Made by a program: the position numbers and the translations under genes. Under the pieces are notes generated by a model. It made no database searches. It saw only the letters and a program-made list of their open reading frames with translations, and was not told the DNA's origin. Source: Glutinoglossum americanum (lineage: Eukaryota; Ascomycota; Geoglossomycetes; Geoglossales; Geoglossaceae). Taken from it: a stretch of 64,000 bases of DNA. Position 1 is the first letter of the stretch. Each line of letters starts with the position of its first letter. Location of the stretch: positions 1 through 64,000 of the forward strand of contig JAGHQL010000014.1 in NCBI GenBank assembly GCA_020080175.1, written 5' to 3'. Positions 12,263 through 63,743 of this stretch are shown here, piece after piece.

Positions 12263-13594
12263 CTATTGCGCCTTCGTGGCAGTCTTACGATGGATTCTCG
12301 GCGCGAAGTCTTTAATGCGCTTTGTGATACGGCGGAAGAAGCGCTGTCGGGCGTTAGCGAGTGTGATGGGCTCAGCTGTGGAGGGTGAGGCTGGGTGCCG
12401 GGGGGGTCGGTCAACATCGGTAGCAGGAGCGAGACGGCCCTCGTCGTCGCGATGTAACGGCTCGTTAGCCAGCAACCCGGGGGCTCTAGCAGAGCCCCCG
12501 CTTAATCTCGACCTTCGGTCGCCATCCGCAAACACCGAGTCAATATCTCTATCCGAGTCGTTCATCTCGCGCATATCCCAGCCAGCCCGACCAGCCATTC
12601 GCAGAACCCTAATCAGGGAATACTGAAGCCGAAGCAGCTCACGGCTTGGGAGGGGTCGTGCTATAGGGTCATCGGTATGGAATGTGATGACGTGGCCATC
12701 TTGGATGAATGTCGGTGGGTTCGTTCGCCCATCTGGCAGGCCAACCCATCTGCCGTCGCCCGATAGTATCGTAGAAAGAGGCGGTAGCTGGTCGGTTAGG
12801 TTAATCGGTGCAAACACACCAGGTTCTAGTCGTGACGACTCGTGGGGATAAACCCAATGCACTACTGCACGTTGCGTGCGCTCGTCGCTAGGATCATCAT
12901 CGGGGTGCGGCTCGAGTGCAAAGCAGCCATCAGCCCAAAGAGCATGAGCATCCGGCCACATTATCATCACATTGTATAGGCGGTTGACCAGCGTTTTCGA
13001 ATTCGAGTTGCCTTGGTCTGGGGGCCCAAAGATGAGGTCCTGGAGTTCCTTTGTGGCTTCGTTACCCCAAAACATTCGTAAGACAGCCCAGAATTCGATG
13101 TCGGCCCGTGCCTGCGATTTTCCCATGCTGTACGGGACGATATGGGCTACCTCGCAGTAGTCTATACTTCGCCCAGTAATCACGCATTCGCGGTCTCGAG
13201 CCTTTGCCTATATATTCAAGAGTCAGTCGATGATTATGCGTCCATCAGAGTATTGGTTTACAACCTTTCCTGGAAGGGTGCTGTCCCTCGTCGTCAAACT
13301 TGGGGCATCTTCCATGACTTTGTAGGTCCGATCACAGCAAAGCCAAGCGTCAATCGCAATACGGCATCGCTCGCTGAATTGGACAAGTTGGTCGGATGAG
13401 AGTGCGAGAAGGCGCTGGCCTGCAGATGGCGGACAGAGGCGGCAGAACGCATGTAGCTCGCGCGAAACGGGTTGGGAAGATAAAGAGAGATGAAGCTGCC
13501 CTAGAGTAGCATTACCGAGGCCAGTCGAGAGTTCCATCGACGTTGGAGAGATGATCAAATTATGTCTATTGAGGTTGTCGTTGAGAGATGCCAC
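12263..13594 (-). CDS. HNH endonuclease-domain protein (HNH_2 type)
   Basis: Two exons, 13594-13262 and 13207-12263, joined by a 54-nt intron (13261-13208; donor GTAAAC, branch CTGAC, acceptor TAG), give 425 residues. The splice removes two in-frame stops and restores the start of the domain. The HNH_2 core begins about residue 115 with RDRECVITGR. Then come EVAHIVPYS (His at about 133), an FW..L..FWG segment, and LYNVMIMWPDAHALW with Asn at about 190 and His at about 199. These match the metal-binding and catalytic residues of fungal HNH_2 proteins. The C-terminal 150 residues are low-complexity and basic at the end. Family members are common fungal singletons of unknown role; DNA cleavage is inferred from the domain. 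It lies downstream of the NLR on the same strand, 820 bp away. Confidence 0.85.
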
Positions 13595-14414: not shown

Positions 14415-17400
14415 CTACTTGATTTTATGATGGTTCGCTTTCAAGAGGTCGTCCCAGGATGCGCCGGTCCATTTCAAGAACCGGTCAGTTATCGCATAAT
14501 TGGCGACAACCTTGCCCCTTTTGTCAGCAATGTTGGGATCTGCACCAGCTTCTATCAATTCCTTCACGATAAGGACTGCCTCCCTGGACATATTGGCAGC
14601 TGCATGAATCAGAGAATTTTTTCCCTCCTTGTCTCTTGCATTCACATCACTGCCGTAGTCCAGAAGAAGTCTGACTTTCCGCAGGTCGCCGGTCTTTGAA
14701 GCACACAGCAAGGCGGTAAAATCACCATGATTCTTCACGTTCACATCCGCCTTGCACTCTAGCAGTAATCGAGTCGTGCCTGCATCAGGGTATCGCTGGC
14801 CGCAGCTGACAGTCAGAGCAGTATCGCCATTCGCGGTTTTTGCATTTACATCTGCCCCGTAGCCCAAGAGTGTTTGAACGGTCTCCAGTGAACCGGATCG
14901 AGAAGCCCGAATTAGAGCAGTCTCGCCATCTCCCCTCACTGCATTTACGTCTGCTCCGCGGTTCAGCAGTTTTTGAATTACCCCCGTCCGGTCGACTAGA
15001 TTTCCGGAGGCAGTAATGAGGGCCGTACGGCCATCTTTCGCTCTCGCATTCACGTCTGCTCCGTGGTCTAGGAGCATTTGAACCGCCTCTGCTGAACTGT
15101 GTGGTCCAGAAGCGTGGATCAAGGCTGTTTCCCCGGTTGTAGTTCTTGCGTTTACGTCTGCTCCATGGTCCAGGAGGATCTGGGCTGTCTCTATCCAGCA
15201 ACCGGACTTATAAGCGCAAATTAGAGCAGTTTCACCATTTGCTTCGGCTGCACTTGTGTCTGCCCCGTAATCCAACAGCATTCGAACTATCTCCGCTGAG
15301 GCTGGTTGAACTAACCGACAGGCGGCAATCAGAGCGGTTCCGCCATCTACGGCCATCCTATTAACGTGTGCTCCATAGCGTAGGAGTAGCCGAACATACT
15401 CGACTGAGCCAGACGCCGCTGCAGCTATCAGAGGCGCTTCCCCACCCCGAGCTTGTTCGTTCATGTCAACTCCATGCTCCAGTAATAGCTGGACCTTGTC
15501 CGGTGAGCCACTCTCCATCGCAGCTGATAGCGGGGTGGGGCCGGCGATATGCGCGTTTAGCTCCGCTCCATGCACCAGTAGCAGTTGAACCACCTCCGCT
15601 GAGTTATGTTGTAAAGCCCCTAGAATAGCAGTTTCTCCGGAAGGGGATAGTGCGTTCACGTATGCTCCGTGGCCCAAGAGCAGTCGGGTTGCCTCGACTG
15701 AGCAGTGGTTTGCTGCATATATAAGAGGAGGCTCACTCCTCCAAAGGCCAACTGTTGCCCACACATTCGTATTCGCTCCACGTTCCAGCAGCAGTTGAAT
15801 CATGTCTGCTGAGTTAGCTCGTATAGCCCTCATAAGGGGGGTTTCTCCGAGAATGTCTCCCACATTTACACTTGCTCCATGGTCTAGTAGCGCTTTCGCT
15901 ATCCTGGTGGAACAAGTTTTCACTGCGGCAAATAAGGCGGTTGATCCATTAGTCCTAGTATAATCAAGGGATGCCCCCTCTTTCAACACCGCCAAAACCT
16001 GGTGGTAGTCACCGCTAGACACAGCATCGAACAATAGCTCATTCACATCGGTGGCTTCCTGAGCAGAATCCATAACTCCAGACAATTGCAAATTGGAGAG
16101 ACTCCTGACCGCTGACTCAATCTCTATGTGTATGTATGTGTGCTTTTCAAGTGCGTTGTTGCTTGTGAAGCCAAAGCGGGCATATTCACAAGATGCATCG
16201 CGACATTTGAACGGCCGATCATGGTTAATAACATGCCGGTCGCGTTCGGCCTTCGACGCAAAACCCCTCACATAGTAGGGACACGTTTGCGCGCCACACT
16301 TAAACAAGCCGCAGCCGTAGAGTCTACTGAGTTGTTCTAAGTCGCCTTCGCATGACACTTGGCTCACTAGACAGTCGAATTCCTCCCAGACGCGAGCAGA
16401 GAGGTCTCTGAGAGTTAAGGGATCTAACTGTTGTTAGTGAGGGAACCATGGCAAGAAACGAAGATACAACAGGCCCACCCTGGTAGTTACTGCTAACGCG
16501 TCCCTGAGACCGGTGTAAAGCTATACGGGACAGTTTCTGATATACATCAGGCGAGCAGCCTCGGAAGGCGTCCAAAGGAAAATTTAGCGTCGGCACTGAA
16601 GGGTCGTCCTTGCTAGCATCCTTTTGCCATCGTGTTAGGAACTGGCGAAGGCAACAAACTAATTCATTGAGTTTTGTAGGGTCCACTCCGCTCCCAGACC
16701 TAACGTGGTCAAGCCAATTCGGCTCTACGTACTCCAGCCAAAGATACTCGCCACGAATAATATAGTCTTTGATTTCGGGATCTGTCAATCCTGGCCTGAA
16801 AGCCAGGAATTGCAGATACCTGAGACAACGAAGGCTCATTTTTTGGTTGGCAGTAGGTAAATCCAGATACGGACCGCTTTCTTGTGAAATTAAATGTCTG
16901 TCCCTTGTAAGCAAAAAAACCTTCGGCAGTGGGAAATGAGAAATTCTCACTCCTTTGCAGTGAAGTGTACCCAGTAAACAAAACCATCCCGGATCTCTAT
17001 AATTGGGCCACAAATCTCCAGGAGTGAGCGCATCAGTATCTGGTTTTTGTTAAAGCAGGTGTCGTTCACTCTGATTGTGAGCGCATGCTTGATCTCCGCT
17101 AGCCTGGGTGATCGTCTGGAGCAAGATAGGAACTCGAGAATTTCCCTTGCAGTGAGCCTCATGTTGGGCCCCAGTTTCTTGTCGATCCTTGTCAGGATCC
17201 TCTCGTAACTAGTTAGCGACGTCAGCATTCAAGCCTTCGCGGTGACTGTGTCAGCCTAAATCCAAAGGTTACATACGCTTCTCCAAGGCCATGAGGGAGA
17301 TTAATCGCGGCCTCCCTTAACTCTGCGATACTTGTTTGATCCTTTAGATTGTAAATTACCAATCGAGCAAATAGGAACATGCCTGTTTTAGATCGCGTCA

Positions 17401-19152
17401 TTAGTCATAGACAATACCTAACAGTGAGAGGACCTAACCTTCCGCCCGTAGTAAAATAGGGCGCAAGATCTTCTCAACCTCGGCACCTCCTATAGGGAAT
17501 AGATCCATTAAGGCCGGCTGCTCACTCATGATATATGTCTCTATGTCGTGCTCGTTATTCTGATTGACGACGATTTGGGGACAACTGGAAAGAAGGTCTT
17601 CCATATCGGCCACAGGTCTGCAACTTATGAGTAATTTGAGGCTACTATCCGTTGATAACCGGAGCAAAATTTTCATCAACTTCTTTCTGTCTTGGTCATC
17701 GAGCTCATCGACCCCATCCAAGAACAAGTAAAATGCTAGTTTCTCAGATTTCAGCAACAAATCTTTAATGTGGTCTTCAAGCTTTTGCAATGACCGAAAG
17801 TTAGATGAAGGAGAATCCCTTATTTCGTCTAGGACATGTAATAGGAGCTGGTCCGCTTCGAGGATATTGTAAATTAAAGTCCGCAAGACCGTCGTAGGTG
17901 CAAGTTTGTCGCGGATTCGATCACTTAGGAACATCCCAATGACAGCGGAGCCGGTGGGCAGAAGCCGGACCCTTGCGTGATTCATTCCAATATAAGACAG
18001 GATAGTTTTCCCTTCAATCCAGTTACGTTCTTAGCAAAACGGGGGATTCTGCAACCTTGGAATTAACAGGCTTACCAGCTCCTGGGATACCCTTGAGCCA
18101 TAAGTTCTTCTCAGGACAGCTATGGTCTAGCCAGTTGGTGAACCTGCCGTTTTGAAAAAACCATTGTCCAGTGTTCGTACAGTAATTATCCTCGCAACGT
18201 TGAAACTCGGCTTCGAAAGATATCGGTGAAAGCCACTCGATAATCCCCTGAAGCGCCCTCTTCTCCCTGTCCTTTCGTGCTTCATCAAATGCTAGCCTCG
18301 CATTGATACGAAATTGGCGTGCTTCAGCAAAATGCGCGGCGGTAGCTTCACTATCAACGAGAGCCGTATGTCGGTTGATGCGATTTACGATATCGGCAAA
18401 TTGATGGTCGAACTTCGCCCACATTATAGCAATGAGCTGCTTCCATGCTGAATAATCGGTCAGCCAAATATCGGAGTCGAAGGAGGTCACTTTAGCCACC
18501 CTACCTTTCATTCGGAAATACTTCAAGAACTCAGAGTAGAACTCCAGAATATCGCTATAGAGCCAACCAAGAACCTCTACGAATCTCGGTTTCTGCTCAA
18601 AAATGGCCGCAAAAGAATCGAAACGCGGAAGGTTTTCACCAATCTTTCGCAACGCGTCTAGAAGTATATCGAAAGACTGTATGTGGGTACTCGCCATCTG
18701 TTGTACGAAGGTAGAGTGAGCCTGCATTTTTAGAACACATTCCGGAGGGGAATTTCGCTTATGACCTGAAGCATTGATCTCAGTGGCCCCTACGTGCCGT
18801 GGCGGATGAGCATATGTTCCATCCAGTGGGAATCTCTAGCAGTGCAACGGTCAAGGGAGTGCCTGCGTACCCAAAGGAAGCCTAGAATATCCGGTCTTGT
18901 CGTTACAACCCCGACTCCTTCTATAGCCCTCAAGAAACGAACCATGCCATCAATGAACGGCGCGATTCTCCTGAGATACCGAAGGCAACCGTCCTTCTCA
19001 TGGCCCTTTTGTATTCTCTCCATTTCTTTGTAAACATCCCCGATGGTTGTGGGCTGAAACTCAGCCTTCTCCTTCGGCGAGAGGGTTTTTAGAAAATTGG
19101 AAAGGGCCACGTCAAATTCGCGTGTAGCTATTGTAGTAGACTCGGAGGCCAT
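14415..19152 (-). CDS. NLR immune-type receptor: DUF7708-like / NACHT / zinc finger / ankyrin
   Basis: Seven exons: 19152-18871, 18721-18076, 18011-17439, 17382-17277, 17208-16951, 16903-16468 and 16427-14415. Together they are 4314 nt, or 1437 residues, with no internal stop. An ATG at 19236 would add 28 residues. Domains in order: an N-terminal helical region (1 to about 250) of the fungal NLR type; NACHT with Walker A GIPGAGKT (305-312) and Walker B FYLFLDGVDELDD (about 403-415); a winged-helix-like region ending near the VHFTAKE motif; paired C2H2-like zinc fingers (LFKC..TCPYY, FKCRDASC); then about 14 ankyrin repeats to the end. The Walker A glycine codon is split by a 64-nt intron. Fungal NLRs of this build are sensors in non-self recognition and programmed cell death; the ankyrin array is the presumed ligand sensor. 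Its start faces that of the SNF2 gene. Confidence 0.9.
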
Positions 19153-19493
19153 TACTATGCCGTGTGTTTCTTGAAAGGTGCACCGGCATTCCGATATTTT
19201 TATGTTGTGTTCTACCATCGAGGTGATGGCTTTCATTTAGCTTTGGTCGCCACGTCAGGCTGCCAAGACTTTCACAGCCGCGATCAGCTGGCCGCAGCAC
19301 TCCACAGCCGACCGCAAGGCTTTCGGCAGAGCAAAGCCCTCAACATCTCTTGGTCGGCCGGTTACACAATCGAAACCCGCAGTGCTTCCGCTGCGCCGCC
19401 TTGTGCTGGTCATCTATAATTCATAATAGGTTTATCAGCCGGTAAAGAGGAGAATTTATCATTTGGCAATCGATAGCCTTTCCTAACGACAGG
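19153..19493. promoter_or_regulatory. Shared divergent promoter of NLR and SNF2 genes
   Basis: Only 341 bp separate the chosen NLR start (19152, minus) from the SNF2 start (19494, plus); it is 257 bp if the NLR begins at 19236. No other gene fits between. The spacing makes co-regulation likely. I did not find a clear TATA box on either side. Confidence 0.6.
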
Positions 19494-22400
19494 ATGTCTC
19501 ATCGGGAGCATCCAGCGCCGTGGGGCACCGGCGATAAAGAAACCCAAAATTTTCATCTAGCAAAGCGGCCCAAGATCGATTCACCAGAGTCAGAGCCACT
19601 ACAATACCGAAGCACTTTTAACGCCGAAAGCGAACCTATCTCCAACAGCCTATACCAGGGGGTTGAAGGCCCCTCGTTCCCGCAAGAGTTTGTCAGCTCC
19701 AGTCGCCAACCTCTCTATCACAGCCAGGGCCCTCTCAGGCAGGAGCCCTCACCGGTTCTGAATCACTGTCAGCACCCTAACTCTAGCCACCTATGGCTTG
19801 GAGTAGCCCCGGCAGTGGGTTCATTTCCCGGAGTCGGGAGTGATTACATTGGTGACTGCCAGCGGGCTGGGGTGTTCTTTGAGCAAAGCTTGGAGCAAGA
19901 TCCCTGCGGAGGTGTGGGGTTGGGGGCCAACCGATATACCACCCCAGATTTACAGATGGAATGCGTGGATCAAAACTTCAGTAGCGGCGGTGAAAGCTGC
20001 CGTCCAGCCACCTACCAGCCAGTAGGCCAAGGAAACCCCACTTGTCAAAACCATGATTTATTGGTCAGATCCCCAGTCCGTTGCGACGGGCTTCTCCTTA
20101 CACATGGTGAGACTTTCTCCCAGGACCGGGGTATTAGAGCATGTAAGTATCCCGTTTTAAACATGTTATGCCATCACAGTTAACTGGGGTATAACACAGG
20201 GAAGAGCGAAATTCCCGAAGATGTAGGCATGTCTGAGGTCGGTGGAGAAGGGGCGATAGAGCCTGGGCTACATGGGACCAAGGGCCACCAGCCCATTCAC
20301 GATGTCTGCTTTGGAATGGTACCTCATCGCCATATTCCATCGAACCTGGTTAGGTATAGAGCTAACTTTAACACACAAGATTTCGGATGCTACCATCAAT
20401 AATTCGAGGAGCTTTGGCAGTCTTTTCAAGGATAATGCACAGCCTAACATCGGCGACCTTACGCTCGCCCAACAGGGCGGCTTGATCACCGTGCACGGCA
20501 CATTGGGAAACTACTTGGGGCTTTTGGACCCTCGCACATCGAAGGCGATCACCAACTTGGCGGAGAATTATTTTGTCCATGTAGAGGCGTATTGCCTCCA
20601 GAACCCGGACCCTAGCAAACGCCAGGCTACGATCTCTATTAACCTATACGGCCTGTCAGAGAACATTGGCGAAGTGGGAGATATTCTCTTCAACAACGGA
20701 GTATTTCTTCAGCTGCCCTCAAAATATGACCCCAAAGTCGAATACAGAAATCCCCAAAGCTTAGAAATACCAAAAGGCGCCCTGGGCCGTTTCGGGAATG
20801 TCGATCGAAGGGCAAAATCCCAGAGGATCTACGACATGAAGGGCGATTTAACGGATTTTTTGGCAACTATAACGAAAGAGATGGCGTTCGAGGACTGCCC
20901 AGTCAGCACGCGGCTGAAAACACCACTACTCAAGTATGCTCCAAATTTTCTTCTCATTAATTCCTGCCATCTCCTGGCGGCTAACCTAACGTCTCCACAA
21001 TATGAAGGCACCAAAAGCAGGGTCTTTCATTCATGAGAGCGAAGGAGAGTGAGCTGTGCGGACCGAAGGATGCCATACCCGACTCTACGAGAACTCTCCT
21101 GCCTGGGCCAATCAGGTAAGTGGGCGTTGGGGTATTTCGGGTTATCCGATATCCGAGAGATCGCCAAGCATTCTCCGAATACATAGTGTATTGTACTCAA
21201 GAGTTGCCGGTCGTTCCTTGATTTCTTTTAACTTCGACCAACTTGAGGAAGGCATTTCTGACGTAGATAATTCGGTAGTGTTGGGGGAATCCTTGCAGAT
21301 CAAATGGGACTCGGCAAATCCCTGACTACTCTGGCCCTGATCGCGGGTTCGATTCCTGACATCGGCGAGGCGCGCGATCCACTCTCGAATGTGACTACAT
21401 TGCTAGTCGCACCAATGTCAAGTCGGTTGCCCCTGTGATTATTATCAAAACACTCTATTTGGAGCTATCGATACTAACAAAAAACAGTCTTGGCTACTTG
21501 GCAGGAAGAAATACAGAGGTATGGCTGTAATCCTAGATTTCCATTATGTTACGGATAGACTTACCCATTTTCTAGGCATGTCAGGCCTGGGTGCCTGAAT
21601 GTGCTCATCTATCACGGCTCTAGAGGCAAAATTGACCTCGACAAAATTGGAATGTCCGATGTCGTTCTGACGACGTATTCGACCGTAGTTTCAGAGTGGA
21701 CCAAACAAGAGTCACTGTTGCACCAGAAACAGTGGTTCCGAATCATACTTGATGAAGGTGCGGCCACTCTTAACTTGAAGCGGGATTACTGGTAACGTCA
21801 ACACAGCTCACTTTCTGAGAGAGCGTTCCACGAGACGGTTCCGCGCTATTTGTGCCCTAAAGGGAGAACGCCGTTGGGCCTTAACTGGAACGCCGGTACA
21901 AAACAGGATTGATGACTTAAGCGGATTGCTCATATTCCTCAAGATTAGCCCGTTCCATAACCATGCTGAATTTCGAGATCAGATTTCTAAGCCTCTCCAG
22001 ATGGGTAGCCTCGATGGGCTTTACCGACTTCGCTCACTTCTAAGCTCAATAGCTCTAAGGCGAACGAGGGAGATTATAGAGCTTCCGCCACGCCACGAGG
22101 TCATCGAAGAACTAGAATTATCAGTGAAAGAACGGCATATTTATGAAGTGTTTAGGGATGAGTCCCGTGCTCTAATTGACACGATGCTAGGTACCGAGGA
22201 TTACACCAGTAGATTTTCTATGATCCAGTCCATACTTCGACAGAGGCAGGTCTGCAACCACGGCACAGAGTTATTGCCTGCCAAAGTAAGGGCCAGGTTG
22301 GACCGGCGCTGTCGAGTTCAACTACTAGAAGGTAACTCGATGCCTGAACAGGGATTTCCAATATTTTGTGAGGGGTGTGACAACGAAATTGATGTCACAG

Positions 22401-23376
22401 AGAGCAATCAAGGAACTTTTGTATCCTGCTTCCATGTTGTATGCCCAAGGTGCCTCAATTCGACGGACCCTGATGCTACAAATGCCTGTCCACTATGCGG
22501 CGTTAATGATACTGAGATACAGGGGGGTAAGCGTAAGGTGAACTCAATATCGGAGTGGCTCAACCAATTAGACTATTCAGGACCATCGACTAAAGTAATG
22601 GCACTTATTGAGAATATCCGTAGTTCCCAGGAGCCAGGATCATCTGAACCTGTGAAGAGGTAAGTGCCGTCGTCGGCCGATTTTTGAGAATATTTACAGA
22701 ACCCTTTCTAGTATCGTGTTCTCAAGCTGGTCGAGGATGCTTTTACTGGTTGAGAAAGCATTCAAAGATTGCAACATACCCTGTACCCGCTTCGACGGGA
22801 CTCTTTCTCTGGAGGCACGGAAGAAAGTTCTGGATGATTTCCAGACGAAATCAGGCACTACCATACTCCTCATAACACTCGGAAGCGGGAGTGTAGGGTA
22901 AGATATACCGCAACCCACTAACACTTTTAAGCCCTAGTTATGTCTCTATACTTGCCTACTTACGCAGAACGGACAGCTTGAATCTCACTGCGGCTTCACA
23001 CGTCCACCTATTAGACATACAGTGGAACCCGCAGGCCGAAAGGCAAGCCTTAGACCGTGTACACCGCCTTGGTCAACGGAATCCCGTCAAGACGGTACGA
23101 TATATTGTCAAGGACTCTATCGACGGGGTGCGTGCCTATGTTTCTGCGGGATTTATGGCTCACTTTTGTGTCTTAGCTAACGGCATCATTGACAGGCGAT
23201 TCTCGATCTCCAGAGAAAGAAGCTGAACATGGCTGAGCTCTCTCTAAGTTCGGTTGAGGCCAGGGGAACCAATCAGACGAAGAAAAGACTCATGGTATCC
23301 TACCTCTCAGGCCTACAGTCTCGCTTCTCAAATATCGCTGACGAGTTTGCAGGATCTCCGTGCGGTGTTTAGGTAA
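19494..23376 (+). CDS. SNF2-family helicase with RING finger (RAD5/HLTF-like)
   Basis: Twelve exons: 19494-20142, 20200-20318, 20380-20933, 21008-21115, 21279-21421, 21488-21518, 21576-21757, 21807-22659, 22712-22897, 22977-23127, 23196-23294 and 23353-23376. Total 3099 nt, 1032 residues. Key parts: LAKRPKID (basic, possible nuclear signal, about residue 25); CFGMISDATI and the RAD5-type substrate region; motif I DQMGLGKSLTT (about 484-494); motif II DEAH (594-597); a RING finger with C-x2-C, CFHVVC and CPLC (about 784-826); helicase C-terminal lobe with FSSWSRM, FDGTLS and RVHRLGQ; a short tail ending DLRAVFR. Apparent frame breaks disappear once introns are applied. Two splice sites are unusual: the donor at 21422 is GTCGGT and the intron 21116-21278 is long. 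Such proteins remodel chromatin or act as ubiquitin ligases in repair. It is divergent from the NLR. Confidence 0.88.
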
Positions 23377-56155: not shown

Positions 56156-57581
56156 TTACGCGTAAGCCCCAAGTTCGCTGAGGGATGTTGCCTCCATTTC
56201 TACACTGGCGAGTTCCCCCTCAGCCTCGTGAACGCTACCCACCGCCTCGTGAACGCTACCCACCGCCTCGTGAACGCTACCCACCGCCTCGTGAACGCTA
56301 CCCTCCGCCTCGTGAACGCTACCCTCCGCCTCGCGAACGCTACCCTCGTCGGGAGGACCCGCCATTCGATAGTCGATGTCTGGAATTATGCGCCTTTCCA
56401 GGCGTGTGTCCCGTCCGTTCCATGTAATGGTAGTCAAAACCATCTTTCCGCCCTCGACCCAGAACGTGTGAATGGTGTTCTCATTCGGCATCGCGATGGC
56501 CATCAAGTCATCCCCCGAGCTTGCCGACAGGCGCCTGCGACTCAACCTCATCCCCTTCTCAACACGGTTGCTATCCGTGTCGAGCCTGAACAGCATATAA
56601 GTGGCATCTACGAGCACTATGTATTTTCCTGAAGGACTCTGTGCCGCTCCTTGGAGTCTGAAAACCTGGATGTTCCAACCTTGGGGTTGCAGGTTTAAGC
56701 CGGTTATTGTGGAGTGGAATATCTCGTATGGTATGCTGGTAAATGCGGTGACGACTGCAATACCTGTGGCGCCATTATGCAGAACAGACGATAGTCCAAA
56801 GTCATCGCCTCCTCCCTGCCCAAAATTAGTTAGCCAAGTAGGGCTTGGGATCTAGAAAAGTACTTCGAGAAGTGAGGTACATACAAGATATTCATTACGG
56901 TTCATAGATATAGACCAGATTCTGGTGCCACGAAGATCATAGATCTCCATAGTGACCTTGCCGGTTGTTGCTCGCCTCGCTATAATCAACATCCTCCGAT
57001 TCTGATCCTGAGAAAAAGATAGTTTTTGACTCTCCAAATCCGATAGCTCCTTCAATTTCCAACGTGACGGCCATGGGCTGTGGAAATGGTAGATGTCGAT
57101 CCTGGACCCAAGACCTATAGAGGCAAGAGAGCCATCTTCAGACATCGCCATGCACAAAACTCTACCGTTTCCATCGACCCGCCCCAGCACTCTCCTATGG
57201 CCTGGCGTGGTGAAAGCCAGAATTTCGCGGTTCTAGGTGGGGTCGTCAGTTCTATCTCTCATAGCGTCGCCGAGCCTTCGGGGATCAGAATACGTTAGAG
57301 ACTGCAACAATTCTGCTCTCTCCGCCGGCCACTTCCTGGACGCCGGCTATCTGCCATAGGCGCCAATCCCATTGGTCGGAGTCTACCTGTGGAATTGCAG
57401 ATGCATAGATATAATCTTCACCTTTCGTCCAGAGGAGTAAAGTCTTGCCGTCCGCCGAAAAACAATGCGACCGTTGAGGTCTCAGCCTGGGCGGTGGGGT
57501 TTGGAGGGAGCGTTCCCCAGAATTCCTGCCCATATTACCGCGCGACCGGAGGTGGGTCCATACCCTAGCGAGGTGCGCCAT
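56156..57581 (-). CDS. Beta-propeller-like (WD40-type) protein with repeat tail
   Basis: Three exons, 57581-57294, 57232-56885 and 56815-56156 (introns 61 and 69 nt), encode 431 residues. Blades are suggested by repeated patterns of the type F-S-x-D-G-K-x-L-L-L-W (HCFSADGKTLLLWTKG, CMAMSEDGSLASIGL, GAAQSPSGKYIVLVDA) followed by hydrophobic strands. This is how WD40-like propellers look in fungal genes of this kind. The C terminus holds six copies of a seven-residue unit (EAVGSVH type), encoded by a 21-bp minisatellite. More N-terminal exons could exist upstream. No signal peptide. The function is unknown; a protein-interaction scaffold is inferred from the fold. Confidence 0.75.
56224..56349. 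repeat. 21-bp minisatellite, six copies, in a coding exon
   Basis: Six tandem units of cctcgtgaacgctacccacc type, each 21 nt, with copies differing by one to three bases. Because 21 is a multiple of three, gain or loss of a unit keeps the minus-strand gene in frame. The plus strand is also open across it (RYPPPRE heptads), which I regard as a by-product. Confidence 0.9.
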
Positions 57582-61450: not shown

Positions 61451-63743
61451 ATGGCGGCCTCTTCAACGCTCAGTCCTGAGCTTAACGCCTGGGTCCGCAG
61501 TCAGTACCACATAGTTGGCATCGACAATAAGGGGAACTTCATCGGGTCTAATGCTTTCAAGGCAAAGCTGATCTCGGCGTATCCTAGCCAGGAACTAGCA
61601 ATACGACAGATAGTCAATAAGTGAGAACCTACGCCCCACCTCGCGAGGCAACATGTTTACGGGGGGCTATGACAGGATGCCGAAGGGAGGGTTCCCCCCT
61701 TCTGCTAAGACCCGGGCAAAGAGTACCGCCCAGTCAGCCCAGCCAACCAAAAAAAAAAACAAATCTTCCACCAGCAAGGAATTTGCTTCCAGCAGTGGCT
61801 CTAACTCTAATTTTAGGTCTACTCAAGGGGTAGGATCGATCCCTCGGACTATTTTAAACGGCACCACTTACGTAGCGACTCATCCAGGGACAGAGCGGCA
61901 GAAGCTCCCGTAGTTCGATTTTCGGACCCTCCAGGGAGGGCAAAGGAAAAGCAAGAGCGGTGAGACACCTACCACACAAATCTAATGACTGCCCAGAGGG
62001 ATGCTGATAATATCAAGATTTTCGATGATAATAATATCCCGATGGAGACCTCAAGCAACGACGGTCATAGCCTCGAACAACCTATCTTGGGTCCCAAACT
62101 CCTAGGTATCCTTCTAAGAGTTAAGGCAAATAGCTTGTTGCTAAGGGATCCCAGAACTACAGGCCTTCCTCGAGACATCGCCGGATCACACTGGAGGACC
62201 ACCCAGCGAAACCGCTAGCCAGTCTCCCCTTGGATCGCCCACATTTAGCCAGCAATCACCGCTGCTCCATCTCGATGATAGCGAGAGCACAGCCCACAAG
62301 GGAGAGCTCTCAACCGGCGACATGGAAAACGCTGTTCTCTTCTCCGCACATCTCTTGGACCACCAAGGCCATGGCCTCCCGCCCCAATACGGACTTTTGG
62401 GGGGTTCTAGTTGTAGGGGAGAGGCAAGCCCAGCAGACACAAGGCTTTTCCTGAACTCAAATATCCCGTTCTCGGCGTTTATATGTGGGGTTCAGGGGAG
62501 TGGAAAGTCACACACGACTTCTTGCATCATCGGCGAGTTAACCGTCCTCAAAACTTCAGTTCTCTACGAGTCCCTCCTCCTAACAGAGCTTCCTAACTAG
62601 AAAACTGCCTCATCCGCTCCCCAACATTAGGGGTCCTCCAAAAACCCCTTTCGGCTCTAGTATTCCACTTCTCTGAATTCACGTCCAGCCTGAATTTCAA
62701 ACCAAGCGAAGCCGCATTCCTAGCACTCCCCAACCCGCAATTTCGCTGTGGCTCAAACGTAGCTTCGGTAACCGTCCTCGTCTCGCCATCGAACTACCTC
62801 AACCTCCGCACGTCGTACGGGCAGATTCCGGGGGTTACGGTTCACCCGTTTAAGCTTCGTTCTAGAGACTTGAATATCGGGGTGATGCTGAAGCTGATGT
62901 CGGTCGATCAGACGCAGGGGCCACCCCTTTATATGAGTCAAGTGACGAAGGTCCTGAGGGGGATGGCGGCGGAGACTATTGGGTGTATTAATTATGGGGC
63001 GTTTAAACGTCACCTGGGGCAGCTAAATCTAGATGGTAAGCAAAGGGAGTTTTTGGGCCAACGACTCGATCTCCTGGAGTCGTTCCTGGACCTGAATGGA
63101 TCTACGACTAGTCCTGGTTTCGAGGCCGGTGGGGTCACCATCATCGATCTTTCCTGTCCCTTCATGGATGCAAATACGGCTTGTGTATTATTCCAAATCG
63201 GAATGAGTATGTACCTGGAATCCAACTCCACGGCTGGAAAAGCTATTGTTGTGGATGAGGCCCATAAAGTGCGCACATTTTCTTAATCCCCCACTCACTT
63301 CAACTGCCGCTTACAAGATATAGTACATGACCGACACACCAGCCTCAAGGGACTTGACTGAATCCCTACTAACGGTAATCCGCCAACAACGGCACTACGG
63401 CGTCCGGGTCATCATTTCAACTCAAGAGCCCACCGTGTCCCCACGCCTCATCGACCTATGCTCAATCACAGTTATCCACCGCTTTTCAAGCCCAGAGTGG
63501 TTCAATGTCCTTCGGAAACACATCTCTATTGTTGGCGAACAGGTTGTCACAAACGGTCTGGACGAGCTTTTCGAGGGAATCCTGAACCTTAGGACTGGAG
63601 AGGCAATTGTTTTTGCCCCTTCAGCGGTTGTCCAGAGGCGAGAGGGGGAAGAGCCATCAGGAAAATTGAATGGCGAGCTGTTGAAGATGAGGATGAGGAA
63701 GAGGTTGTCATGGGATTCGGGAAAATCGATTGTTTGTATTTGA
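61451..63743 (+). CDS. HerA/FtsK-type P-loop ATPase
   Basis: Seven exons, 61451-61620, 61676-61829, 61888-61959, 61997-62105, 62146-62532, 62601-63268 and 63324-63743, total 1980 nt, 659 residues. The first 225 residues are low-complexity (Lys/Ser/Gln-rich). The ATPase part has Walker A GVQGSGKSHTTS (from about 283), a Walker B ending KAIVVDEAHK (DEAH at 516-519), a following Y-M-T-D and R-Q-Q-R-H segment, and the VRVIISTQEP motif (about 547-556) with ITVIHRFSS downstream. This order matches the HerA/FtsK/VirD4 superfamily of DNA or protein translocases. The family occurs in fungi without a known role. Intron 5 (62533-62600) appears to start with GC (GCGAGT) rather than GT, and introns 3 and 4 are very short (37 and 40 nt). 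Start chosen at the ATG of MAASSTLSPEL; an alternative in-frame CTG lies upstream. Confidence 0.8.

What the first reader, a model, noticed from the sequence alone, without database searches (positions are those of the whole stretch)
14415..23376. Head-to-head NLR and SNF2/RING helicase: a possible sensor-effector pair
An intact NACHT-ankyrin NLR and an intact RAD5/HLTF-like helicase start only about 260-340 bp apart on opposite strands. In fungi, NLRs are often encoded beside their effector partner and share a promoter. A chromatin or ubiquitin-ligase helicase as partner is not something I know to be described. Both genes are complete (1437 and 1032 residues) although much of the surrounding DNA is decayed, which hints at selection on the pair.
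Basis: partly seen in the sequence, partly recalled or inferred. Interest (0 to 1): 0.75.

Follow-up and report, generated by a model that had tools for sequence, protein, structure and literature searches.

The report
Ancient fungal NLR–chromatin helicase gene pair
In an earth-tongue fungus, an immune-receptor-like gene and a DNA-remodelling helicase gene sit side by side at eight separate places and have diverged in step, which suggests an unrecognised two-part defence or signalling unit.

Summary
A complete NLR (1427 aa; DUF7708, NACHT, C2H2 finger pair, ankyrin repeats) and a complete Rad5-like SNF2/RING helicase (1050 aa) lie 341 bp apart on opposite strands in Glutinoglossum americanum. 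The pairing recurs. In this genome all 8 detected members of the helicase subfamily have an NLR of the same kind beside them: 7 divergent (one, C156, seen only as an NLR N-terminus at a contig end) and 1 convergent. None of 26 other SNF2 loci has a listed NACHT match within 28 kb. NLR and helicase diverged in parallel (Mantel r = 0.857; 1 of 5040 permutations, the true pairing, reaches it), and maximum-likelihood trees show the same main groups. In Scytalidium lignicola both halves occur in one predicted 2102-residue protein that groups with two of these pairs in both families. The flanks compared share no third gene. This points to an old, co-inherited two-gene unit, most likely a nuclear NLR complex in which the helicase acts on DNA or chromatin; the direction of signalling is not shown. 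Seven literature searches showed no report of such a partner. Adjacency in other species rests on one predicted protein.

The parts
14415..19152 (-). NLR gene, 8 exons, 1427 aa
   Evidence: hand-made spliced model without internal stop; relative-driven alignment without frameshift, 4 of 7 introns the same by length
18506..18897 (-). DUF7708 match, residues 86-166 (spans two introns)
   Evidence: Pfam PF24809, E 1.4e-8
17617..18175 (-). NACHT / NPHP3_N ATPase, residues 277-441; Walker A GIPGAGKT at 305
   Evidence: Pfam PF24883, E 1.7e-26; motif; STAND fold of the relative P0121
16125..16304 (-). pair of C2H2 zinc fingers, residues 799-858
   Evidence: motif; seven of the eight Cys/His positions are invariant in 7 own NLRs and the Scytalidium protein, the eighth His shifts by a residue and is missing in C250
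14460..16034 (-). ankyrin repeats, from residue 889
   Evidence: Pfam Ank_2, E 6.7e-79
19153..19493 (.). 341-bp stretch between the two start codons, candidate bidirectional promoter
   Evidence: coordinates; promoter function not tested
19494..23373 (+). SNF2/RING helicase gene, 11 exons, 1050 aa; deposited in a shorter form without the motif I exon as FGG08_001100
   Evidence: spliced model, 8 of 10 introns confirmed with the relative P0009; P0001
20380..20933 (+). exon of the N-terminal domain (residues 256-440); in the relative P0009 this region aligns with the part of Rad5 ahead of its ATPase
   Evidence: no Pfam HIRAN match in this protein, 9 of 38 relatives match HIRAN at E up to 0.1
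21012..22261 (+). SNF2 ATPase lobe 1, residues 442-747 (GGILADQMGLGKS, DEAH, LTGTPVQN)
   Evidence: Pfam PF00176, E 3.8e-62; motifs
22367..22501 (+). RING finger between the lobes, residues 783-827
   Evidence: PF14634 E 1.4e-4, below Pfam's cut-off; C-x2-C / C-x-H-x2-C-x2-C / C-x2-C pattern
22637..23073 (+). helicase C-terminal lobe, residues 873-974
   Evidence: Pfam PF00271, E 2e-17

Best explanation
The two genes form an old two-gene unit that is inherited and duplicated together. SHOWN: repeated pairing in this genome, parallel divergence, ATPase motifs kept in all eight helicases. INFERRED: the products work in one pathway, probably one complex in the nucleus. I think the NLR is the ligand-gated part: its C-terminal repeats or extra fingers sense something, the STAND ATPase switches and oligomerises, and the C2H2 pair docks on nucleic acid or on the helicase. 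The helicase, a Rad5/HLTF-like DNA translocase that in most copies keeps a RING, then acts on chromatin or on foreign DNA. About 0.9 for a functional pair of some kind, about 0.4 for this direction (NLR gates helicase). The first two rivals share the functional pair and differ in direction, so the numbers overlap.
For: 8 of 8 detected subfamily helicases beside such an NLR, one on a fragment; 0 of 26 other SNF2 loci with a listed NACHT match within 28 kb. Mantel r 0.857, 1 of 5040 permutations for 7 own pairs; 0.845, 3 of 40320 with Scytalidium. ML trees: C250, C290 and Scytalidium fall in one clade (100/100) in both families, C30, C43 and C70 in another, C46 next to the first, C297 apart. NLR plus helicase in one predicted protein, P0124. 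All 8 own helicases match the patterns for motifs I, II, III and VI. Rows of three NLR searches that reach the C2H2 block are all paired loci. DNA side: Rad5 is the best solved relative of P0009 (4.5e-61); 7 of 13 NLR relatives match Pfam zf-C2H2, and their profile finds classical DNA-binding fingers.
Against: No expression or interaction data. C290 is tail to tail, so a shared promoter is not needed. RING is degenerate in C70 and C297, so ubiquitin ligation cannot be the general output. The Scytalidium protein is a prediction marked partial, could be two merged neighbours, and its helicase half fails the motif I pattern; it was the only protein with both halves among the 43 hits and the 120 shown of 391. 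Trichoglossum hirsutum has an NLR relative (P0123, 49% over residues 644-1427), but no helicase from it is among the 120 shown of 2868; the window's own NLR is likewise not among the 43 hits, so annotation gaps are likely. Listed NLRs and helicases of Hymenoscyphus fraxineus and Hypoxylon NC1633 sit on contigs of different length, though they fall in lineages that are not each other's match. The C297 NLR was missed by all three NLR searches at the C2H2 block, so an unpaired divergent NLR of this kind could be missed too.
Confidence: 0.6

Rival explanations
1. Helicase as sensor, NLR as executor: the SNF2 protein recognises foreign or unusual DNA (mycovirus intermediates, transposons, non-self nuclei) and hands the signal to the NLR, which kills or arrests the cell.
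Against: The NLR carries its own variable repeats (ankyrin), usually the sensing part (recalled); no test of either direction was possible.
Confidence: 0.25
2. Guarded partner or decoy: the NLR watches the integrity of its neighbour helicase, as plant NLRs watch guardees.
For: Lineage-matched co-divergence fits a guard that must fit its guardee.
Against: Eight different guardees of one kind, each with a private guard, in one genome would be unusual.
Confidence: 0.12
3. Linked but not cooperating: the pair duplicates together because it is compact or shares regulatory DNA (the helicase may only control the chromatin of its neighbour), or because both ride a mobile element.
For: Compact layout in the window (341 bp); flanks were compared only over short distances.
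Against: Own pairs are only 23-39% (NLR) and 30-41% (helicase) identical, so the link is old. Flanks share no third gene apart from an ankyrin match between C43 and C250 (about 4-5 kb per side for C43, C250, C297 and C290, about 8.5 kb per side for the window, 5.4 kb on one side for C156, at most 1.5 kb for C30 and C70). Orientation is reversed at C290 and, if the gene model holds, in line in Scytalidium, yet the link stayed.
Confidence: 0.1

Closest known systems
nwd2 / het-S two-gene cluster (Podospora anserina and other fungi)
   Same: an NLR gene next to its partner gene, the two-gene cluster being conserved in various fungal genomes (passages of PMC10197012 and PMC9815663)
   Different: partner there is a pore-forming HeLo protein activated by amyloid templating; here a SNF2/RING helicase, and the NLR has a DUF7708 region at its N-terminus
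Fungal NLRs with CHAT or protease domains beside gasdermin genes
   Same: two-gene cell-death unit that can include an NLR (passages of PMC9815663, PMC10197012)
   Different: the neighbour here is a SNF2-family DNA translocase, not a gasdermin
Rad5 / HLTF (SNF2 ATPase with RING, HIRAN)
   Different: separate in the trees from six other SNF2 genes of this genome; RING degenerate in two of eight; HIRAN not detected by Pfam in this protein
C2H2-bearing fungal NLRs of Sordariales
   Same: C2H2 fingers in NLRs; 57 NLRs with zinc fingers reported, 34 of them C2H2, most C-terminal (passages of PMC12258605)
   Different: the main text has 0 occurrences of helicase or SNF2; there the zinc fingers next to repeats were all treble-clef type, here a C2H2 pair stands before ankyrin repeats
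Nuclear NLRs such as CIITA and NLRC5 (recalled)
   Same: STAND ATPase working on chromatin in the nucleus, as supposed here
   Different: no dedicated neighbouring remodeller is known to me

Membership tests
Fungal NLR (STAND) | NACHT or NB-ARC type ATPase with Walker motifs | tested here: met
Fungal NLR (STAND) | C-terminal repeats of ankyrin, WD40 or TPR type | tested here: met
   ankyrin in the window's NLR and in C250 by tblastn; C30 and C297 end in further finger-like pieces instead
Fungal NLR (STAND) | N-terminal effector or signalling domain | tested here: inconclusive
   DUF7708 found, function unknown; 0 papers of the library name it
NLR-effector two-gene cluster of the nwd2/het-S kind | adjacency conserved in several genomes | tested here: inconclusive
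   8 of 8 loci within this genome; other species only through P0124
NLR-effector two-gene cluster of the nwd2/het-S kind | partner is a HeLo-type or other pore-forming protein | tested here: not met
   partner is SNF2 + Helicase_C + RING-like
NLR-effector two-gene cluster of the nwd2/het-S kind | amyloid motif shared by both proteins | not tested
   no motif search was run
Rad5 / HLTF helicases | SNF2 ATPase with RING between the lobes | tested here: met
   RING pattern intact in 6 of 8 own paralogues, Pfam RING below cut-off in this one
Rad5 / HLTF helicases | N-terminal HIRAN domain | tested here: inconclusive
   no Pfam match in this protein or P0009; 9 of 38 relatives match at E up to 0.1; model of P0009 aligns with Rad5 from residue 205
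Mobile-element cargo | shared element genes or repeats around the copies | tested here: inconclusive

The most novel reading that the evidence does not exclude
Filamentous fungi carry a class of nuclear immune receptor in which an NLR and a dedicated Rad5-like SNF2/RING motor form one switchable machine: on sensing non-self it remodels chromatin or attacks foreign DNA, a eukaryotic parallel to helicase-based defence of bacteria. The eight lineages in one genome would be eight specificities of one system.
Probability: 0.35. Interest if true: 0.92.

Novelty: new variant of a known kind. Interest (0 to 1): 0.82.

Why it matters
Fungal NLR partners described in the passages seen open membranes, cut proteins or template amyloids. 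A chromatin or DNA motor as the standing partner would add a nuclear branch to fungal immunity and allorecognition, give eight natural replicates for testing sensor-partner co-evolution, and make the question 'do NLRs act on DNA directly?' testable in laboratory fungi.

Tried and rejected
Chance neighbourhood: rejected by recurrence and by the 0-of-26 control. Recent segmental duplication: rejected, the copies are 23-41% identical and the flanks compared differ. Broken genes in the pairs: two apparent frameshifts in the C30 and C70 helicases read as GC-AG introns once such introns were allowed. A third conserved gene: none found in the flanks compared, only an ankyrin match. Other fused proteins: none besides P0124 in the 120 shown of 391. 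Contig-length matching between hits to find same-contig pairs in other species led nowhere; only the top 120 of 2868 helicases are visible. The fold of DUF7708 was not settled: structural matches span model residues 281-712 and barely test the N-terminal helices; a HeLo-type fold did not appear there, which proves nothing. tRNA and Rfam scans of the window gave no match. My first splice models (and the NLR) had wrong boundaries and were replaced.

Literature; in the listings (at most 20 titles shown, of 0 to 242 papers each) I saw no paper on a fungal NLR with a SNF2 partner. The one paper holding all terms (PMC12246121, a review of pattern recognition receptors) was not opened. Of five papers only passages from word searches were seen; helicase and SNF2 had 0 occurrences in each main text. 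One search (the species name) listed three papers, none on its genome by title.

Limits of counts. Genome searches score only the best candidates (53 of 190, 49 of 229 and 39 of 216 in the NLR searches), so NLR counts are lower bounds; one search did not print its last matches. The 34 SNF2 loci were grouped by hand from 57 rows, and the distances use coordinates typed. Of the 26 other SNF2 loci 6 (C31, C222, one at C260, C275, C135, C272) were placed in a tree and fall outside the paired group; the other 20 were judged by low scores or no match. C156: the NLR N-terminus scored 73 with P0125 and 69 with the window's NLR, 55 with P0121, and was not found with P0122; the 200 shuffles, scored with P0121 and P0125, kept base composition only (maximum 49). 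Motif IV was not matched in C290 and motif I not in Scytalidium.

Full report
What was asked.

The genes. The window is contig C46 of a 25.77 Mb assembly in 317 contigs. The helicase matches FGG08_001100 of Glutinoglossum americanum (P0001), and the contig length of another hit, FGG08_002488, equals that of contig C250 (157,782), so the organism is that earth tongue. The NLR reads 1427 residues through 8 exons, the helicase 1050 through 11, 341 bp between the start codons. The deposited helicase starts later and skips the exon of motif I. Alignment with the relative P0009 supports the full form from about residue 256 on, with 8 of 10 introns identical. For the NLR, 4 of 7 introns agree by length with the aligner; introns 1, 2 and 6 differ.

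The pairing recurs. A search of the genome for the SNF2 family gives 57 matches, which I grouped into 34 loci; the NACHT-type family NPHP3_N gives 156 matches. Eight SNF2 loci belong with the window's helicase: C30, C43, C46, C70, C156, C250, C290, C297. Seven have a NACHT match 2.6-4.1 kb away and a modelled NLR of the same make-up: DUF7708-like N-terminus, NACHT, C2H2 pair. Six of these are divergent; C290 is convergent. The eighth, C156, begins about 1.25 kb from the contig end; there, on the opposite strand, the first 49 residues of such an NLR can be read, scoring 73 against a maximum of 49 in 200 composition-preserving shuffles. So 8 of 8 are paired, the eighth on a fragment. Of the other 26 SNF2 loci none has a listed NACHT match within 28 kb. 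Fisher p = 1.5e-6 for 7/8 against 0/26; binomial p about 2e-8. Conversely, in three NLR searches the rows that reach the C2H2 block (C30, C43, C46, C70, C250, C290) are all paired loci; the searches were not exhaustive, and none of them reached the C2H2 block of the C297 NLR.

The two families diverged in step. Among the seven own pairs identities are 23-39% for NLRs and 30-41% for helicases. The distance matrices correlate at r = 0.857, reached by 1 of 5040 permutations, the true one; with the Scytalidium protein r = 0.845, 3 of 40320. ML trees show the same main groups: C250, C290 and Scytalidium in one clade with 100/100 in both families; C30, C43 and C70 in another (100/100 helicase, 100/99 NLR); C46 beside the first (100/99 NLR; 90/90 in the second helicase tree, unresolved in the first); C297 apart, though it moves between the two helicase trees. 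Several helicase branches are long. Lineage C290 joins Fusarium sequences in both families, with Hypoxylon cercidicola among the NLRs.

Another fungus. P0124 of Scytalidium lignicola, 2102 residues and marked partial, holds the NLR with its C2H2 pair and then the helicase. It is a true fusion or two neighbours merged by gene prediction; either way the genes lie next to each other, in line rather than head to head. No second such protein appeared among the hits shown.

What the parts suggest. All eight own helicases match the patterns for motifs I, II, III and VI; the RING pattern is intact in six and degenerate in C70 and C297. The relative P0009 (C250) folds as a SNF2 motor (mean pLDDT 71), and Rad5 is the closest solved sequence (4.5e-61). 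The NLR relative P0121 folds as a STAND protein (mean pLDDT 74). Seven of 13 NLR relatives match Pfam zf-C2H2, and their profile finds classical DNA-binding fingers. By eye the C30 NLR ends in two more fingers and C297 in a finger-like piece. C46 and C250 have ankyrin repeats; C70 aligns with an ankyrin-bearing relative, C43 has an ankyrin-like frame behind it, and the C290 tail was not classified. The helicase N-terminus holds KRPK, a possible nuclear signal (my reading). Together this speaks for a nuclear machine that acts on DNA or chromatin. Which partner senses is open.

Against. No expression data. Neighbourhood in other species is nearly untested, since no other eukaryote genome could be searched. 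Trichoglossum hirsutum shows the NLR relative, but no helicase from it is among the 120 shown of 2868; the window's own NLR is likewise not among the 43 hits, so absence there means little. In Hymenoscyphus fraxineus and Hypoxylon NC1633 the listed NLR and helicase are on contigs of different length, though they belong to lineages that are not each other's match.

Verdict. Seven topic searches (listings, and passages of five papers) showed no NLR with such a partner. It is a new variant of the known fungal NLR-partner gene pair. The mechanism is inference.

Noticed in passing
L039 (C30 helicase) and L041 (C70 helicase): Each of these paired helicases carries one GC-AG intron at a place where paralogues have a GT-AG intron.
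   Followed up: yes
window 56159-56851 (-), TRF array 56217-56347: 6.2 copies of a 21-bp unit, 96% matches, coding a repeated EGSVHEA-like heptapeptide inside a 231-aa open frame with no Pfam match.
   Followed up: partly
window 12266-13207 (-): HNH_2 endonuclease-type open frame just beyond the NLR; no match to it in the compared flanks of the other pairs.
   Followed up: partly
window 62597-63286 (+): 229-aa open frame ending in a Walker B-like IVVDEAHK, no Pfam match at 0.001; perhaps part of a P-loop ATPase.
   Followed up: no
G000:C46:108541-109668: A DUF7708 match followed by a NACHT match on the same contig, about 89 kb away, with no SNF2 match near it.
   Followed up: no
whole genome G000: At least 156 NPHP3_N matches in a 25.8 Mb genome: a large NLR-like repertoire.
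   Followed up: no
P0001 (FGG08_001100) against window 19494-23373: The deposited helicase lacks about 255 N-terminal residues and the motif I exon, and the window's NLR was not among the 43 hits; such annotation gaps could hide this pairing in surveys.
   Followed up: partly
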